From Pseudemcibacter aquimaris (GTDB lineage: Bacteria; Pseudomonadota; Alphaproteobacteria; Sphingomonadales; Emcibacteraceae), in the NCBI RefSeq assembly GCF_028869115.1, contig NZ_CP079800.1:3075501-3139500 (forward strand): a DNA stretch of 64,000 nt, given 5' to 3'. Below the pieces are notes generated by a model. It was given only the letters and a program-made list of their open reading frames with translations, did not search any database and had not been told where the DNA came from. The translations under genes were made by a program, and so were the position numbers. Position 1 is the stretch's first letter; every line of letters begins with the position of its first letter. This document shows positions 1 to 57,895 of the stretch, in pieces.

Positions 1-212
1 TGCCCGTAATGGACGGTATATCACTTGCCCTTAAAGTCACAGCAGAATATCCCGAACTTCCAATATTGATGATGACAGGTTTTGTCCACGAAAAACAAAA
101 AGCAAAAGACATTGGCGGGCTAACTCACAATATAATCAGCAAACCATTTTCACTTGATGAAATTTGTCATGCCGTTGATGAAGTTTTAACGGCCAGTAAA
201 ACGCTGCATTAA
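1..212 (+). CDS. Response regulator receiver domain, CpdR-like (3' end only)
   Basis: This is the C-terminal part of a two-component receiver domain; the start lies before the window. The reading frame is open from base 3 and contains the conserved MDGI loop after the missing phospho-Asp strand, the MMTGF strand with the signalling Thr, and the ISKPFSLDEI segment with the invariant Lys-Pro. It stops right after the receiver fold with no output domain, so it is a stand-alone receiver. The sequence resembles the single-domain alphaproteobacterial regulator CpdR, which primes ClpXP proteolysis in the cell cycle, but the phosphorylation site is not visible and the CpdR label is tentative. Confidence 0.75.
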   Translation, partial: PVMDGISLALKVTAEYPELPILMMTGFVHEKQKAKDIGGLTHNIISKPFSLDEICHAVDEVLTASKTLH

Positions 213-50421: not shown

Positions 50422-51444
<1,023 letters not shown>

Positions 51445-51540
51445 TTAATATAAGAATCTTTGCATTCGATTTACCTTGAAAACACTGTAAACGCAACAGT
51501 TTCTGTTCTTTTTTGGTCATATTTCTAAAGAATATTAACT

Positions 51541-52701
51541 TTAGATAGCATGACCTTTTGCAAGATATTCTTTTGACTGCATTTCCATCAGCCTTGATAC
51601 TGTCCTTTGAAACTCAAAATGACCGTGTCCTTCTGCATATAACTCCTCTGGTGAGGCTTCCGCACAACAAAGAAATTTTACGTTATTTTCGTAAAGCGCA
51701 TCAATGAATGTCACAAATCTTTTGGCTTCATTTCTGTTTTCCGGCCCGAGTTTTGGAATGCCAACCATAATGATAGTATGATACTTCCAAGCAAGCGCCA
51801 GATAATCCGCTGCCCCAAGGGCTGCCGCGCACATTTTCTTAAATGATACCACCGCAACCCCTCTTGATGCGACGGGAACATGCAGTATTCTTCCCTGCAC
51901 CTCAATTTCCTCTGGCCCAACCTCGGATCTATCATCCACTTCATGATCGGTTAGTTTCCAGAATGATTCAGATAATGCCTTTGTTGCCTTCTCACCTAAC
52001 GGATGATGGTAAACGGCCATACCTTTCATCCGTTCAAGCCTGTAATCCGTTGGGCCATCAAGCTGAATGATTTCTAACTTTTCTTTAATCATATCAATTG
52101 TTGGTAAAAACAATCCCCGATTGAGACCATCTTTATAAAGATCATCAGGAATGCGGTTTGACGTAAGCACTAAAATAACACCCCTATCAAATAACGCCTG
52201 AAACAACCGCCCCAATATCATGGCATCGGTCACATCGGTTACCTGAAATTCATCAAAACATAAAAGTGGACTATGCTCCGCAATTTGTGCGGCAAGTGGC
52301 GGGATTGGGTCATCTTCTTTGGTGCCGAATTTTTTTATCCGGTCATCCCCGGACATATAGCGCCAATCATGCATTTCTTGATGTATTTCAAGCATAAATG
52401 CGTGAAAATGCACGCGTCGCTTTTTACCAGGCGCAAGATCATAAAATAAATCCATCAACATGGATTTTCCACGACCAACATCACCATAAATATAAAGACC
52501 CTTTAAATGTGGGTTTTCTTGTTTTTTGCTAAATAGTTTGGATAACAGTTTTCTTTGACCATTATCGCTTTTTTCTTTTAATGCCTGATAGAGTTTTTGA
52601 AACTTCTGAACAACTTGATACTGAATGGGGTCTTCTTTTAATTCTCCCTTTTCCAGCATTTCATGATATAGTTGATCTGGTTCTGTCGATTTATATGTCA
52701 T
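51541..52701 (-). CDS. zapE: Cell division ATPase ZapE (AFG1-like)
   Basis: A 386-residue AAA-type ATPase of the AFG1 family. Walker A is GDVGRGKS at 73-80, Walker B is LLCFDEFQVTD, and the arginine-bearing LVLTSNRIPDDLY follows. ZapE interacts with FtsZ under stress in E. coli; the mitochondrial homologue Lace1/Afg1 acts in respiratory complex turnover. The place upstream of mdh is common in alphaproteobacteria. A 153-base gap to mdh suggests separate promoters. Confidence 0.95.
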   Translation of the reverse strand: MTYKSTEPDQLYHEMLEKGELKEDPIQYQVVQKFQKLYQALKEKSDNGQRKLLSKLFSKKQENPHLKGLYIYGDVGRGKSMLMDLFYDLAPGKKRRVHFHAFMLEIHQEMHDWRYMSGDDRIKKFGTKEDDPIPPLAAQIAEHSPLLCFDEFQVTDVTDAMILGRLFQALFDRGVILVLTSNRIPDDLYKDGLNRGLFLPTIDMIKEKLEIIQLDGPTDYRLERMKGMAVYHHPLGEKATKALSESFWKLTDHEVDDRSEVGPEEIEVQGRILHVPVASRGVAVVSFKKMCAAALGAADYLALAWKYHTIIMVGIPKLGPENRNEAKRFVTFIDALYENNVKFLCCAEASPEELYAEGHGHFEFQRTVSRLMEMQSKEYLAKGHAI

Positions 52702-52797
52702 TAAATCAGTATTTTAATAGTTTTGTTATCATTTTGATAACTAATATAGGCTAATTTCCCGCAAATATATAACAAAGTTTACTTTGGGAGAAATATT

Positions 52798-53010
52798 ATG
52801 AAATTGAGTTTTGATATACCTGTCTATAACAAAGAAGTCCGTGCTGCGGTACAGCAGGGGAAATCACACCCAGATTTCGAAGATAAATGGGCTGATATTC
52901 ACATTATGACGGAAAGAGCCCATACCCCAGATGAAGCTTGGGCGCAATGTGAAAGAAAGCATCCGGAACGCCTTGGTTTTATTCTTGGGGATGCGGTTGA
53001 CGCTCTATAA
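52798..53010 (+). CDS. Small uncharacterised protein, tandem family copy 1
   Basis: A 70-residue protein of no recognised family. With the next two genes it shares a 52-residue core that aligns without gaps: YN-x2-VR-x2-V-x5-H-x4-D-x-WA, then P-x3-GF at the end. Here the core is residues 10-61 (YNKEVRAAV, HPDFEDKWAD, HPERLGF). A GGGAG ribosome site precedes the ATG. No signal peptide or membrane segment, so probably cytosolic. It is divergent from zapE. Confidence 0.75.
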   Translation: MKLSFDIPVYNKEVRAAVQQGKSHPDFEDKWADIHIMTERAHTPDEAWAQCERKHPERLGFILGDAVDAL

Positions 53011-53025
53011 GAAAGAAATATACGA

Positions 53026-53316
53026 ATGAGCAATTTTGAAAAAGTACGTGAAGCTCGTATGAGCGAGCTAAGAAACACAAAAATTTTTGAAGTCGTCATG
53101 TATAATACGGAAGTACGTGCTGCTGTCGAATTTGACGAACATCACCCGCGTTATGACGATGGATGGGCCGACCCCAGATACATTGAACTTCCCGCCCGCG
53201 ACATTCGTGGCGCCATCCGTAAAATCAGATCGAAATACCCAAGGGTCAGAGGATTTAAAATCATGGCCATTACCGAAATTCCGGAATTCACCCACGAAGA
53301 TCTGGTAATGAGATAA
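53026..53316 (+). CDS. Small uncharacterised protein, tandem family copy 2
   Basis: A 96-residue protein and the second member of the tandem family, 15 bases after copy 1. An extra N-terminal segment of about 20 residues (FEKVREARMSELRN) comes before the shared core (YNTEVRAAV, HPRYDDGWAD, YPRVRGF). It has 15 or more core positions identical to copy 1. The C-terminus adds about 17 acidic residues. Probably cytosolic; function unknown. Confidence 0.75.
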   Translation: MSNFEKVREARMSELRNTKIFEVVMYNTEVRAAVEFDEHHPRYDDGWADPRYIELPARDIRGAIRKIRSKYPRVRGFKIMAITEIPEFTHEDLVMR

Positions 53317-53408
53317 TTCTATAAATTTTTACATATCTCTTTACAGATTATTTAAGGGTCTTTGGTACCATATTAACCATAAGACGAATCAAATGAGTAT
53401 TAAGAGTT

Positions 53409-53645
53409 ATGTTAAGCGTACCAAGAATTGAACAAAATATTTATGAGTTCTCCCTTTACAACCAAGATGTAAGAAACCTTGTAGAACAAGGTGAATCCCA
53501 TCGTCATTATGATGACGAATGGGCAGAACAACGTTATGTGCAAATCACTGCAACTGACGAAAAAAAAGCGACAGTCGAAATTAACCGTCGCTTTCCTAAG
53601 TCAAATGGCTTTGTTTATACCAGTGTTGTCAAATTTATGGATTAA
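53409..53645 (+). CDS. Small uncharacterised protein, tandem family copy 3
   Basis: A 78-residue third member of the same family. The core is YNQDVRNLV, HRHYDDEWAE and FPKSNGF. The 92-base gap before it is AT-rich and may hold its own promoter. Its last 11 bases overlap the end of the L,D-transpeptidase gene on the other strand. Function unknown. Confidence 0.75.
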   Translation: MLSVPRIEQNIYEFSLYNQDVRNLVEQGESHRHYDDEWAEQRYVQITATDEKKATVEINRRFPKSNGFVYTSVVKFMD

Positions 53646-54168
53646 TGATTTCGAGTGATGTTTCCGGCGTCAGTTTAGGCAACAATTCGAGCAAATGATC
53701 TTTTTTTAAAGAAACACATCCTTCGGTGCCTTTAAAATCATTGTCACTTAAATCGCGTGCCACATGCATGAATATTGCACTGCCCTTACCAGGAACAACT
53801 GGATCATCATTATACCCAAGTACAACAAGCACATCATATAAATCGTCATCACGCCATAAGTTTTCAGCACTAGCATGATATGGAAGCATCACCGATTTAT
53901 TATAAGCCACATCATTTGGATCATCACACCAACCATCTTCGCGTATTAAAGCCATCATCGGCACCTGTGTATAAATGGGACCATCCAATTTATCATAACG
54001 ATAATAAACACTGCGCAAGGCAAATTTTCCTGTTGGGCTTTTATGATCACCTTCAGCTTTATTGATTGTGATCCCTTCTTTGCCAAGCGCACAGGGGTAT
54101 GTTTCTTCGCCCATCCTCAAAATGCCACGCGATGGATCTTTTGTGGTTGGTGTGACGGTAATATTCAT
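53635..54168 (-). CDS. L,D-transpeptidase family protein
   Basis: A 177-residue YkuD-type L,D-transpeptidase domain. The catalytic motif is H135 in IFMHVARDL and C151 in GTEGCVSL. GDHKSPTGKFAL marks the domain. There is no signal peptide, so the export route or the site of action is unclear. It starts two bases after pspC and therefore looks like the fourth gene of the psp operon. Confidence 0.88.
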   Translation of the reverse strand: MNITVTPTTKDPSRGILRMGEETYPCALGKEGITINKAEGDHKSPTGKFALRSVYYRYDKLDGPIYTQVPMMALIREDGWCDDPNDVAYNKSVMLPYHASAENLWRDDDLYDVLVVLGYNDDPVVPGKGSAIFMHVARDLSDNDFKGTEGCVSLKKDHLLELLPKLTPETSLEIINP

Positions 54169-54170
54169 TA

Positions 54171-54566
54171 TTATTTATCCAGATCGTTTATTTCACGGTG
54201 AAGATTATAACTAGGCGAGGTCACATGCGCTTCCGCTGCCCTTAAGCGTCGTTCGATGTCGCGAAATTTATGGCGCACATCACGAACCGTGTTTGATGGC
54301 TCTGTTCTTACGCCTTTCCAGAATTCGCCTTCTCTTTTGCTTTCAAACATGTCCACTGGCTTTGCATCCAGGAAAATGGCAAGCAGGATATAACCCACGA
54401 GGATCAGACCGCCACCGAATAATCCAATAATAACGGTGGCAATACGAACAACCATCGGATCGATACCAAAATAATCGGCAATACCGGCACAGACACCGGA
54501 AATTTTCGCATTTTGCTTATCCAGATATAATTTTTTATATTTCGGCGGTTTTGAATTTCCGTACAT
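54171..54566 (-). CDS. pspC: Phage shock protein C
   Basis: A 131-residue membrane protein. A PspC domain with KLYLDKQNAKISGVCAGIADYFGIDP precedes a transmembrane segment (about 40-65), followed by a charged helical tail. In the Psp system PspC works with PspB to relieve PspA inhibition of PspF under membrane stress. The ATG overlaps the pspB stop (TAATG); a TTG five codons upstream is less likely. Confidence 0.9.
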   Translation of the reverse strand: MYGNSKPPKYKKLYLDKQNAKISGVCAGIADYFGIDPMVVRIATVIIGLFGGGLILVGYILLAIFLDAKPVDMFESKREGEFWKGVRTEPSNTVRDVRHKFRDIERRLRAAEAHVTSPSYNLHREINDLDK

Positions 54567-54778
54567 TATTTCTTTCTCCAACCTGGTTCTTCAGCATCCA
54601 GAATTCGTTCGATATTAGTTATACGTGCATCAATTCGTTCTGCACTTTCCCAAAGATCAGCAAGAAGTGTTTCATCTTCGTTACTGATGGTTTTTGTTGA
54701 TTTCCATCTTGTGATGTAATGAAGCAATATCCATATCGGGGCCACCACGACCATGAAAAGTATGCCAACAATTTCCAT
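54566..54778 (-). CDS. pspB: Phage shock protein B
   Basis: A 70-residue protein with one N-terminal transmembrane segment (about 3-22) and a C-terminal amphipathic helix (DLWESAERIDARITNIERIL), the PspB layout. It works with PspC at the inner membrane. An AAAGGAT ribosome site precedes the start. It overlaps pspC and follows pspA after a hairpin. Confidence 0.9.
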   Translation of the reverse strand: MEIVGILFMVVVAPIWILLHYITRWKSTKTISNEDETLLADLWESAERIDARITNIERILDAEEPGWRKK

Positions 54779-54794
54779 TTTTTATCCTTTCTCT

Positions 54795-54821
54795 AATCAG
54801 TGTCTAAAAGATACACTGATT
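54795..54821 (-). other. Hairpin between pspA and pspB
   Basis: AATCAGTGT (54795-54803) pairs with ACACTGATT (54813-54821). On the minus strand it begins right at the pspA stop and has no T-run after it, so it may stabilise pspA mRNA and set a higher PspA:PspB ratio instead of ending transcription. Confidence 0.55.
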
Positions 54822-54822
54822 T

Positions 54823-55506
54823 TTACTTCTTTTCATCCTTGGCATTCTTTTTCGCAAGCTTCGCTTTTAATTCTTCAAGCTCATCGGCGACATTTTCCGC
54901 TGCTTCTAGGTCAGCAAACTCTTCGTGCAATGATTTTTCACGACCCAGTTCCTGTGCCTCAACACGGCTTTCTGTTTCCTCAACACGTTTTTCCATTAAA
55001 TGGAAACGGTTCATCACGTCTTCGATACGGTTATCATAAAGCTTTGCACGAACACGAAGCTGACTTTCAGCAGAGTTTTTGCGCTCTATAAGCGTTTTCT
55101 GCTTTTGCTTGGCTTCCTTGATTTTTGCTTCAAGGCGCACGATATCATCTTCGTATTTTTTAAGGGCTTCTTCTAAAGGAGCGCGGTCCTGCTCCAGTTC
55201 CTGAGCCAAGTCCACCAACTTTGATTTTTCAATGAGTGCTGCATTTGCAAGGTCCTCTCTATCTTTGCTTAACGCCAGTTCCGCTTTTGCAAGCCAGTCG
55301 TCTTCGACTTTCTTCAAGCGAACCAGATTTCTATCAAGTTCTTTACGGTCAGCGATAACACGTGCCGCAGAAGAACGCACCTCTACTAATGTATCTTCCA
55401 TTTCCTGGATCATCATACGGATCATTTTGTCCGGATCTTCTGCCTTATCCAGCAGATGCGAAATATTTGAATTAATTATGTCAGTCAGGCGTGTAAAAAT
55501 GCCCAT
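54823..55506 (-). CDS. pspA: Phage shock protein A
   Basis: A 227-residue ESCRT-III-like coiled-coil protein that polymerises on damaged inner membrane and inhibits PspF. It begins GIFTRLTDIINSNISHLLDKAEDPDKMIRMMIQEME-type helix alpha0/alpha1 (about 2-37). Coiled coil continues to the end. It is the first gene of pspA-pspB-pspC-L,D-transpeptidase, transcribed from the sigma-54 promoter at 55559-55575. Confidence 0.95.
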   Translation of the reverse strand: MGIFTRLTDIINSNISHLLDKAEDPDKMIRMMIQEMEDTLVEVRSSAARVIADRKELDRNLVRLKKVEDDWLAKAELALSKDREDLANAALIEKSKLVDLAQELEQDRAPLEEALKKYEDDIVRLEAKIKEAKQKQKTLIERKNSAESQLRVRAKLYDNRIEDVMNRFHLMEKRVEETESRVEAQELGREKSLHEEFADLEAAENVADELEELKAKLAKKNAKDEKK

Positions 55507-55558
55507 GTTTATTCTCCGTAAATATATTGTCCCAACTCGGGGCCTTCACGATCTTATA

Positions 55559-55575
55559 TTGCACAAGGCGTGCCA
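55559..55575 (-). promoter_or_regulatory. Sigma-54 promoter of the psp operon
   Basis: The minus strand reads TGGCACGCCTTGTGCAA. The -24 GG and -12 GC are 12 bases apart, as required, and only one base of TGGCACG-N4-TTGCA differs. It lies about 53-69 bases upstream of the pspA start. The divergent pspF encodes the matching enhancer-binding activator. Confidence 0.9.
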
Positions 55576-55707
55576 ACTTTTGTTTTTTTGATTAACTTAT
55601 TGAAATTATTGAATTAATTTTATTTTAGGTAAAAATTGACCCAAAACCAAAATTAAATAAATTATTATTAATTAGTATTTTTTATCATTTTTTGATATTT
55701 TTTTAAC

Positions 55708-56721
55708 ATGAATATTGATCAACAAATCATCATTGGCGAAAGTCCTGCTTTTTTAGAAATTATCGAACAAACAAGCAGCGCCGCCAGACATAATAGACCG
55801 GTTCTTGTGATCGGTGAACGCGGTACGGGTAAGGAACTGATCGCATCCCGTTTGCATTTCCTATCCCCCAGATGGGAACAAAATTTTGTTCAGGTTAATT
55901 GCGCGGCTCTTCCTGAAAATCTGCTTGAGGCTGAATTATTCGGCCATGAGGCTGGTGCCTTCACAGGATCACAAGGAAAACGCATTGGCCGTTTCGAAGA
56001 AGCCCATAAAGGCACATTGTTTCTTGATGAAATTGCAACCACATCATTATCAGCACAGGAAAAAATTCTGCGAGTTACCGAGTATGGAACATTCCAAAGA
56101 CTGGGTAGCAATAAGACGCTCCATACTGATGTCCGCATTATTGGCGCAACCAATGTGGATCTTCCGTCACTTGCCGATATGGGTGATTTTCGTCATGACT
56201 TGCTCGACCGGCTTGCGCTTGATGTAATAACCCTTCCCCCTTTAAGACATAGAAAAGAAGACATCATTATTTTGTCATTTCATTTTGGCCAAAAGATTGC
56301 CCAGGAAATCGGATGGGAATCATTCCCTGGCTTTTCCCATGATTTGATTGATGAATTAATGTCATACGAATGGCCCGGCAATATTCGCGAACTTAAAAAT
56401 GTCATTGAACGCGCCGTATATTACGCGTCCAATGAATTTGAACCCGTTAATCAAATAATGCTCGATCCATTTGCATCGCCATATAGGCCCAAAAGAAAAA
56501 TCATGGAAACAGTGGAAAAAGAACATGAGGATGGTTTATATAACAAACCGGATGTTCTTGAGGGGCCCGTTGATTTCAATGAAAGCATCGAAAATTTCGA
56601 AAAATCATTGCTGATAAATGCATTAAAGCAAAATAAGTTTAACCAAAAAAATGCTGCGAAATTTTTGAACCTGAATTACCATCAATTAAGACACCAATTA
56701 AAAAAACATAATATATCATAA
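55708..56721 (+). CDS. pspF: Psp operon transcriptional activator PspF
   Basis: A 337-residue sigma-54 enhancer-binding protein without an N-terminal sensor domain, as in PspF. Walker A is GERGTGKE (36-43), Walker B LFLDEI (104-109), and a Fis-type helix-turn-helix lies at the end (QKNAAKFLNLNYHQLRHQL). The sigma-54 contact loop is GAFTGS (83-88) where GAFTGA is usual. PspA binds and inhibits it until membrane stress. It is divergent from pspA, 201 bases away; a weak TTGACC (55636) could be its -35 element. Confidence 0.92.
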   Translation: MNIDQQIIIGESPAFLEIIEQTSSAARHNRPVLVIGERGTGKELIASRLHFLSPRWEQNFVQVNCAALPENLLEAELFGHEAGAFTGSQGKRIGRFEEAHKGTLFLDEIATTSLSAQEKILRVTEYGTFQRLGSNKTLHTDVRIIGATNVDLPSLADMGDFRHDLLDRLALDVITLPPLRHRKEDIIILSFHFGQKIAQEIGWESFPGFSHDLIDELMSYEWPGNIRELKNVIERAVYYASNEFEPVNQIMLDPFASPYRPKRKIMETVEKEHEDGLYNKPDVLEGPVDFNESIENFEKSLLINALKQNKFNQKNAAKFLNLNYHQLRHQLKKHNIS

Positions 56722-56734
56722 TAAGGAATAAATC

Positions 56735-57895
56735 ATGAAGATCGGCATATTAACCAGCGGGGGCGACGTCCCGGGTCTTAATGCCTGTATCAAGGCAATT
56801 GTCGAAGGCGCCGAGAAAAACGGCTGGGAAGCCGTAGGTATTAAACGCGGCTGGAAAGGGCTTCTTGATTATAATCCTGATGGCAATCCGGAACTGAATA
56901 GATCACTTTCCACGCCCCTTCATTCATCGGAATTACGGGGTATTGAAAATATCGGCGGTACGTTTCTCCATACTTCACGTTATAATCCCGTTCAAATTGA
57001 TGAGGCATTCCTGCCTGAATTCTTAAAAGGGAATGTCCCAGCATCAAAATTTAAAAAAGGATCATTTGATTGTACGGATCATATCCTGAAAATTCTTGAT
57101 CTCATGGAAATTGATGCACTTGTTCCCATCGGCGGTGATGGATCATTAAGATTCGCAGCGCACCTAACCCAACAAGGGTTTCCAGTGATCAGTATTCCAA
57201 AAACCATGGATAATGATGTTAATGGTACGGATTACTGTATCGGGTTTAGCACCTGTGTCACACGCTGCGTTGACAGCATTAATAAAATCAGAAGCACGGC
57301 TGCCAGCCATGAACGCATCGCAATCATCGAACTATTTGGTCGCCATAGCGGTGAACCTGCACTATTAAGCGGTCATATTGCATCCGCTGATAGGGTCTTA
57401 ATCCCCGAAGTTCCCATTGACCTTAATCATTTTAGTGACCTGATTATCGCCGACCGCGTACGCAACACGAATAATTATGCCGTCGCCGTGGTTGCCGAAG
57501 GGGCGACTTTAAAAGATGGTAACAATGTCTATCAGGGAAAAAAGGATCAATACGGCAATGACAAACTTGGCGGTATTGGTGACTTGATCTACGAAGACCT
57601 TAGAAAAAATCATAAAGTCAGCGTGCTCACGCAACCACTTGCTTATTTACTTAGAAGCGGGGAACCGGATGCCCTTGATAAGCTTGTCGCCGGAAATTTC
57701 GGTGCCATGGCCGTTCAGCAAATTGAAAAAAACAATTTCGGTAAAATGACGGCAATCATTGACGGCAATTATGAACTGGCCAGCAATGATTGTGTGTTAA
57801 CACCGCAGGAAAACCTGATCGTCAGCAATGTATATGACGTTGATAATTACCGTCCGGATATCAAAAATATCCTTGGACGCCCAATGTATCTATAG
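56735..57895 (+). CDS. pfkA: 6-phosphofructokinase family protein
   Basis: Phosphorylates fructose 6-phosphate. It has 386 residues. LTSGGDVPGLNACI opens the chain, GGDGS is at 133-137 and PKTMDND at 155-161. GGDGS (Gly at the position called 104 in E. coli) is typical of ATP enzymes, while PKTxDND (Lys at 124) is typical of pyrophosphate enzymes; the mixed pair occurs in some ATP-dependent long forms. ATP use is therefore likelier but not certain. Its end overlaps the convergent PIG-L gene by six bases. Confidence 0.9.
   Translation: MKIGILTSGGDVPGLNACIKAIVEGAEKNGWEAVGIKRGWKGLLDYNPDGNPELNRSLSTPLHSSELRGIENIGGTFLHTSRYNPVQIDEAFLPEFLKGNVPASKFKKGSFDCTDHILKILDLMEIDALVPIGGDGSLRFAAHLTQQGFPVISIPKTMDNDVNGTDYCIGFSTCVTRCVDSINKIRSTAASHERIAIIELFGRHSGEPALLSGHIASADRVLIPEVPIDLNHFSDLIIADRVRNTNNYAVAVVAEGATLKDGNNVYQGKKDQYGNDKLGGIGDLIYEDLRKNHKVSVLTQPLAYLLRSGEPDALDKLVAGNFGAMAVQQIEKNNFGKMTAIIDGNYELASNDCVLTPQENLIVSNVYDVDNYRPDIKNILGRPMYL

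What the first reader, a model, noticed from the sequence alone, without database searches (positions are those of the whole stretch)
52798..53645. Tandem triplicate of an uncharacterised 70-96 residue protein family
Seen: the three genes align without gaps over 52 residues with invariant YN, VR, V, H, D, WA, P and GF positions (YN-x2-VR-x2-V-x5-H-x4-D-x-WA-x23-P-x3-GF). The rest has diverged and copy 2 has extra ends. Inference: an old tandem duplication kept under selection for a shared fold. The conserved His, Asp and Trp could form a binding site. I know of no named family that fits.
Basis: partly seen in the sequence, partly recalled or inferred. Interest (0 to 1): 0.7.

Follow-up and report, generated by a model that had tools for sequence, protein, structure and literature searches.

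The report
Three sister genes, unnamed protein family
Three neighbouring bacterial genes encode old, still-conserved sister copies of a small protein that no family library we searched names; relatives occur in many alphaproteobacteria, some beside central-metabolism genes, but what they do is unknown.

Summary
Copies 1, 2 and 3 (70, 96, 78 aa) lie head to tail at 52798-53645. Fourteen of 52 gap-free columns are invariant, against at most 4 in 20,000 shuffles. Pfam, NCBIfam, PHROGs and PADLOC do not name the family. Profiles find it in 34 of 385 alphaproteobacterial genomes; the single-domain queries used found nothing in phage, plasmid or viral collections. AlphaFold2 models of copies 2 and 3 share a confident strand-helix-strand-helix-strand fold without a significant PDB match. 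The copies are separate old paralogue clades under purifying selection. In much of the order the gene sits in a TCA-cycle cluster. In the window's genus it lies between zapE and a psp envelope-stress operon, but lacks the sigma-54 site that pspA carries. Elsewhere the domain ends membrane-anchored helical proteins, often encoded as adjacent pairs. Best reading: non-catalytic modules forming mixed oligomers near TCA/respiratory enzymes. Identity is firm; mechanism is inferred.

The parts
52798..53010 (+). Copy 1 (type A), 70 aa
   Evidence: type A is also found beside zapE in other genera of the family
53026..53316 (+). Copy 2 (type B), 96 aa; predicted extra N-terminal helix (residues 3-16) and a C-terminal tail
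   Evidence: most conserved type in the genus, mean identity 0.82; only genus rows in its clade
53409..53645 (+). Copy 3 (type C), 78 aa; its 3' end overlaps the convergent YkuD gene by 11 bases
   Evidence: present in 6 of 10 genus loci where it could be judged, the window included
52724..52754 (+). Block upstream of copy 1, similar in the genus rows long enough to cover it (possible promoter region shared with divergent zapE)
   Evidence: function inferred
51541..52701 (-). zapE (AFG1-like ATPase), divergent neighbour; mdh, sucC, sucD and sucA lie beyond it, down to 45282
   Evidence: (AFG1_ATPase 4e-117); mdh and suc names by eye
53635..54168 (-). L,D-transpeptidase-like (YkuD) gene, convergent neighbour
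   Evidence: PF03734 E 3e-13
54171..55506 (-). pspC, pspB and pspA (phage shock genes)
   Evidence: PspC 7e-20, PspB 7e-27, PspA_IM30 2e-40
55560..55575 (-). Sigma-54 promoter-like site (10 of 11 consensus positions) in front of pspA; the best site in front of the triplet matches 6 of 11

Best explanation
The three genes are old tandem paralogues of an unnamed alphaproteobacterial family of small proteins, probably cytosolic (strand-helix-strand-helix-strand). Shown: homology, shared fold prediction for two copies, purifying selection, absence from the phage, plasmid and viral collections searched with single-domain queries, a home in the TCA/zapE gene cluster in much of the order, and use of the same domain as the C-terminal part of proteins with an N-terminal hydrophobic segment that are mostly encoded as adjacent pairs. 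Inferred: the proteins are not enzymes but binding/assembly modules. The paralogues combine into mixed oligomers and act as adaptors or regulators of TCA-cycle or respiratory enzymes; in other lineages they do so at the inner membrane through the anchored forms.
For: Pairing: types A and B lie side by side in 10 of 10 genus loci where it could be judged. Tandem pairs also occur in three other genera of the family (L106, L108, L110) and in 7 of the 10 contig-scan loci outside the genus, one partner cut by a contig end. Of 17 loci of the paired anchored type examined, 16 have two such ORFs; in 7 of these the genes overlap by 4 bases with the starts chosen, in one more by 1 base by the record's annotation, and in one they are 0.7 kb apart. 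Location: of 7 genomes of other genera of the family whose surroundings were fetched, 6 have the gene beside zapE and mdh (one contig ends in mdh; the other five go on to sucC and sucA); of 7 fetched genomes of other families of the order, 3 do, all of one family. A gene read by eye as sdhB lies on the other side in 8 loci. In three distant small genomes the gene follows mdh-sucC-sucD on the same strand by 129-181 bases. No catalytic set: only Asn, Val, Trp and Gly are invariant in 57 rows. Anchored forms: an N-terminal hydrophobic segment, then a charged stretch, then the domain.
Against: There is no interaction, expression or phenotype evidence. In 30 of the 33 other class genomes with hits, no TCA gene of the set queried was found in the fetched stretch; neighbours there vary (recX and XdhC-like genes, an NFU-like gene, nuo genes, a response regulator; labels by eye). 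Four of 7 fetched genomes of other families of the order also lack the TCA link. The three distant TCA-linked genomes form one clade, so they may be one event. All single-domain loci fetched from the class search hold one copy. One genus genome rated 99% complete lacks the family (G002). The TCA cluster is itself often conserved in alphaproteobacteria (recalled), so a neutral passenger could show the same linkage. In the window the copies run opposite to zapE-mdh-suc and are not in one operon with them.
Confidence: 0.33

Rival explanations
1. Psp accessory: the proteins belong to the phage-shock (membrane stress) response, the soluble forms beside pspABC in this genus and the anchored forms at the membrane elsewhere.
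For: The triplet or pair is next to YkuD-pspC-pspB-pspA-pspF in the window and in 9 of 10 other genus loci (the tenth is cut by a contig end). An anchored pair lies 1.4 kb from pspFABC in a distant genome (L145). Genomes with the family carry PspB more often than expected: 15 of 34 against 3.7, p 1e-7; the paired anchored form 7 of 8; a RuBisCO control gives 6 of 34 against 4.2, p 0.24.
Against: pspA has a sigma-54-like site (9 or more of 11) in 10 of 10 genus loci, the shorter region in front of copy 1 in 0 of 10. Outside the genus, 0 of 18 fetched loci of the order have psp genes in the stretch (up to 20 kb, some shorter). In L133 and L134 pspA/pspC relatives are 8-9 kb away. Co-occurrence is not corrected for relatedness or genome size. 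PspB does not match the four anchored proteins scanned at E <= 1.
Confidence: 0.17
2. Generic binding module with unrelated partners in each lineage; the TCA and psp neighbourhoods are passengers of conserved gene order.
For: Neighbours differ between families of the class; 34 of 385 class genomes have the family.
Against: The gene stays with the same TCA genes across several genera and one further family of the order; association with PspB exceeds a control gene.
Confidence: 0.3
3. Small subunit that docks on RNA polymerase or the ribosome, by analogy of fold with YkzG (RNA polymerase interacting protein) and archaeal LX / eL20 (the last two names recalled from the chains).
For: Best PDB fold matches of copy 2: YkzG 4njc_A (E 0.03, probability 1.00, TM 0.67 by target) and a chain of the T. 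kodakarensis ribosome, 6skf_BT (E 0.055); for copy 3 chains of large ribosomal subunits come first and often (best E 0.13).
Against: No match reaches E 0.001; YkzG is not in the 50 rows shown for copy 3; no sequence match (nothing better than E 0.81); the fold is small.
Confidence: 0.07
4. Enzyme or metal site built on the conserved His, Asp and Trp.
For: His 54/57, Trp 57/57 in A3.
Against: Asp only 47/57; His replaced by Asn in 3 of 57 rows, the clade of small genomes; Arg 46/57; domain of only about 65 residues.
Confidence: 0.05
5. Phage- or plasmid-derived cargo genes.
For: Weak fold resemblance to small phage proteins (BFVD best E 0.008); one anchored relative on an Indioceanicola plasmid.
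Against: No match to copy 3 in 50,697 phage and 72,556 plasmid records, none to another member in plasmids, no relative of the three in viral contigs; fixed position in the genus.
Confidence: 0.03

Closest known systems
RNA polymerase interacting protein YkzG (4njc)
   Same: About 60 residues, similar small fold (Foldseek probability 1.00, TM 0.67 by target, for copy 2)
   Different: E 0.03 only; not in the 50 rows shown for copy 3; no sequence match; binding to RNA polymerase untested here
Ribosomal protein LX / eL20 (names recalled; chains such as 6skf_BT, 8esq_S)
   Same: Recurring fold matches for both models
   Different: No E below 0.05; no sequence match; archaeal and eukaryotic ribosomes
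DpnD/PcfM-like (PF14207)
   Same: One of 57 members touches it at E 0.0023
   Different: 56 of 57 do not at E 0.01; the curated cut-off is not shown in that table
PspB (PF06667), as analogue of the anchored forms
   Same: Short protein with an N-terminal membrane segment and a helical stretch (architecture of PspB recalled); co-occurs in genomes
   Different: No PspB match at E <= 1 in the four anchored proteins scanned; the window's PspB has 70 residues, no room for the extra domain

Membership tests
Any family of Pfam-A, NCBIfam, PHROGs, PADLOC | HMM match near or above curated cut-off | tested here: not met
   57 members scanned at E 0.01: best Pfam E 0.0023 (1 member), best NCBIfam 0.0031 (3 members, Icd-like), PHROGs 0, PADLOC 0
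RNA polymerase interacting protein YkzG | Significant structural match | tested here: inconclusive
   E 0.03, probability 1.00 for copy 2; not in the 50 rows shown for copy 3
RNA polymerase interacting protein YkzG | Sequence relationship | tested here: not met
   profile A2 against PDB sequences gives 3 rows at E <= 10, YkzG not among them
RNA polymerase interacting protein YkzG | Binds RNA polymerase | not testable with these tools
   needs co-purification
Psp regulon (PspF/sigma-54) | Sigma-54 promoter in front of the genes | tested here: not met
   sites with 9 or more of 11 positions: 0 of 10 genus loci in front of copy 1, 10 of 10 in front of pspA
Psp regulon (PspF/sigma-54) | Adjacency to psp genes conserved beyond the genus | tested here: not met
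   0 of 18 other fetched loci of the order; one adjacent anchored pair in a distant genome (L145)
PspB | PF06667 match in the anchored forms | tested here: not met
   no match at E <= 1 in 4 proteins
The new family itself | Asn-x2-Val, Trp, Gly invariant core, nearly gap-free, same fold | tested here: met
   fold modelled for copies 2 and 3 only

The most novel reading that the evidence does not exclude
An undescribed alphaproteobacterial adaptor system: one small domain used both as sets of soluble paralogues beside TCA-cycle genes and as paired, membrane-anchored helical proteins, forming mixed oligomers that couple central-carbon enzymes to the inner membrane and its stress state.
Probability: 0.12. 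Interest if true: 0.75.

Novelty: new variant of a known kind. Interest (0 to 1): 0.42.

Why it matters
It defines a family that the searched libraries do not name, in 34 of 385 sampled alphaproteobacterial genomes, with a nearly gap-free signature, a confident predicted fold, two architectures and two recurrent neighbourhoods. That turns several hypothetical proteins into one testable question. If the adaptor reading holds, it would be a new link between the TCA cycle and the membrane; if not, it is still a usable family definition.

Tried and rejected
Named-family searches gave nothing significant. Sequence search of solved structures gave three chance-level rows. Fold searches in PDB and BFVD gave no E below 0.001. 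Phage, plasmid and viral-contig searches were empty for the single-domain queries used; the anchored form hit one Indioceanicola plasmid record. The idea that the anchored forms are PspB fusions was dropped (no HMM match). The idea that the triplet belongs to the PspF regulon was weakened by the missing sigma-54 site; the generic sigma-54 pattern scan of the window was uninformative (316 matches, 315 expected). Rfam: no family at gathering score in 51000-57000. The promoter/terminator scan was near chance (13 promoter-like against 9.2, 5 terminator-like against 2.8). The family-wise PspB co-occurrence test was not relied on, because it ignores relatedness and because averaged per family the RuBisCO control is also raised (0.21 against 0.12 overall; PspB 0.43 against 0.11). 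Literature: six searches and passages of two papers showed nothing on this family; most subscription papers are not held.

Full report
What is there. Three short ORFs follow each other on the + strand: 52798-53010 (70 aa), 53026-53316 (96 aa) and 53409-53645 (78 aa). BLASTP between the copies gives 4e-11 to 1e-16. The whole genome (3.37 Mb, one contig) holds no other member; a fourth hit at E 0.35 is taken as noise.

How wide the family is. With the three copies as profile, 28 of 40 genomes of the relatives draw match, the window's own counted. With a 34-row profile, 41 of 246 genomes of the order and 34 of 385 of the class match, each counting the window's genome. In a phylum draw 6 of 398 match, all in the same class; how many of the 398 lie outside the class is not shown. 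Within the genus 11 of 13 genomes have it; of the two without, one is rated 53% and one 99% complete. A contig scan gave 13 loci from records titled Emcibacteraceae, Kordiimonadaceae, Rhodospirillales, Rhodospirillaceae and broader names. Copy 3 finds nothing in phage or plasmid records, another single-domain member nothing in plasmids, and the viral contig scan nothing. The anchored form hits one Indioceanicola profundi plasmid, where the gene and its neighbour are called hypothetical proteins.

No named family. All 57 members of alignment A3 were scanned against four libraries at E 0.01. Pfam's best is 0.0023 (DpnD-PcfM, one member), NCBIfam's best 0.0031 (Icd-like, three members), PHROGs and PADLOC none. 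Of the anchored proteins, four were scanned against Pfam at E 1 and nine at E 0.01 (one protein is in both, as L060 and L092); they gave only weak matches below the curated cut-offs.

Conserved residues and fold. In 57 rows Asn18, Val21, Trp38 and Gly67 (numbering of copy 3) are invariant; His31 is 54/57, Phe68 52/57, Pro63 52/57, Asp36 47/57, Arg22 46/57. AlphaFold2 gives copy 3 a mean pLDDT of 90.2: strand 10-18, helix 19-26, short helix 36-39, strand 42-48, helix 51-61, strand 68-76. Copy 2 gives 90.6 with the same elements plus an N-terminal helix and a short C-terminal one. Copy 1 was not modelled. pTM is 0.71 for both. No PDB match reaches E 0.001; the nearest are YkzG (E 0.03, copy 2), ribosomal chains (LX and eL20, names recalled) and phycobilisome chains. 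Small phage proteins match at E 0.008 or weaker.

Age and selection. On a tree of 96 domains (68 columns, many forks unresolved) the three types of the genus form separate clades, A 100/87, B 100/99, C 100/98. Type A continues into other genera of the family, also beside zapE. Type C groups moderately (85/82) with copies of other genera. Type B has a long stem and no close outside relative in this sample. Type A is present in 11 of 11 genus loci, B in 10 of 10 and C in 6 of 10 where they could be judged, the window included. Median dN/dS is 0.12, 0.06 and 0.14, from usable pairs only (16 of 55, 11 of 45, 8 of 15; dS about 2, so rough).

Neighbourhood. In the window the order is sucA, sucD, sucC, mdh, zapE (minus strand), copies 1-3 (plus), then YkuD, pspC, pspB, pspA (minus) and pspF (plus); 9 of 10 other genus loci show YkuD-psp on that side and the tenth is cut. 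In 6 of 7 fetched genomes of other genera of the family (one contig ends inside mdh), and 3 of 7 fetched genomes of other families of the order (all of one family), the gene is again beside zapE and mdh, without psp. A gene read by eye as sdhB lies on its other side in 8 loci, and L108, L117 and L123 were looked at in full (labels by eye). For all 33 other class genomes with hits at least one stretch was fetched, some cut short by contig ends: 3 have mdh-sucC-sucD-gene on one strand, and these three form one clade; in 30 no queried TCA gene was found. Other neighbours, read by eye, include recX and XdhC-like genes, an NFU-like gene, and nuo genes.

Psp question. The triplet touches the psp region, so I tested it. 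pspA has a sigma-54-like site in 10 of 10 genus loci (8 with 10 of 11 consensus positions, 2 with 9), the shorter zapE/copy-1 gap none with 9 or more (the window's best is 6). That gap instead holds a block similar across the genus rows that cover it. Among 385 genomes (same handles and size in the three searches), 34 carry the family and 42 PspB; 15 carry both against 3.7 expected (p 1e-7). RuBisCO as a control gives 6 of 34 against 4.2 (p 0.24). The paired anchored form, as I sorted it, has PspB in 7 of 8 genomes, the remaining members in 8 of 26 (expected 2.8, p 0.004). These counts ignore kinship and genome size. One anchored pair lies 1.4 kb from a pspFABC operon (L145).

Second architecture. 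The domain also ends proteins of roughly 165-240 residues (one 292 with the longest start) with an N-terminal hydrophobic segment and a charged stretch (hydropathy only, coiled coil judged by eye). One group is single (L085, L087, L092, L129). The other has two such ORFs in 16 of 17 loci, with the second partner often keeping only the Trp-to-Gly half; some partners match weakly (E up to 0.01). In 7 of the 16 the genes overlap by 4 bases with the starts chosen in the script, in L144 by 1 base by annotation, and in L156 they are 0.7 kb apart. By contrast, the single-domain loci fetched from the class search hold one copy each.

Mechanism. Shown: homology, fold prediction, selection, place, two architectures. 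Inferred: repeated tandem pairing points to mixed oligomers; the lack of an invariant polar set points away from catalysis; the gene order points to TCA or respiratory enzymes as partners. I put this at 0.33. The strongest rivals are a generic module with varied partners (0.3) and a Psp accessory (0.17). Residual probability is for functions not thought of.

Literature. Of PMC11237479 (Psp partners) I saw the listing with part of the abstract and 12 passages. They describe Toastrack, PspAA, PspAB and other partners, and Alphaproteobacteria with Toastrack proteins in place of PspC; this family was not in those passages. Of PMC2602986 (mini-protein survey) I saw the listing and 8 passages, with nothing on this family. 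The other searches gave nothing relevant in their listings; no other paper was opened.

Noticed in passing
55560-55575 (-), window; same place in nine other genus loci: Strong sigma-54 promoter-like site in front of pspA, found in 10 of 10 loci; this alphaproteobacterial psp operon looks classically PspF-controlled.
   Followed up: yes
53635-54168 (-): A YkuD-type L,D-transpeptidase gene follows pspC on the same strand, in the window and in 9 of 10 other genus loci, the tenth cut; possible cell-wall arm of the psp operon.
   Followed up: partly
L133-L135, L144-L156: Paired, often overlapping genes for membrane-anchored helical proteins ending in this domain; several pairs per genome in G212, G308 and G137.
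   Followed up: partly
L128 9667-10002, L131 9677-9970, L132 9687-10037: Clade in small genomes with a short insertion and Asn in place of the conserved His, encoded right after mdh-sucC-sucD.
   Followed up: partly
52724-52754: AT-rich block between zapE and copy 1, similar across the genus rows that cover it, possibly the divergent promoter region.
   Followed up: no
56735-57895 (+): A 386-aa ORF just downstream of pspF that looks like a phosphofructokinase-type protein (label by eye; not scanned) is kept next to pspF in 9 of 10 other genus loci, the tenth cut.
   Followed up: no
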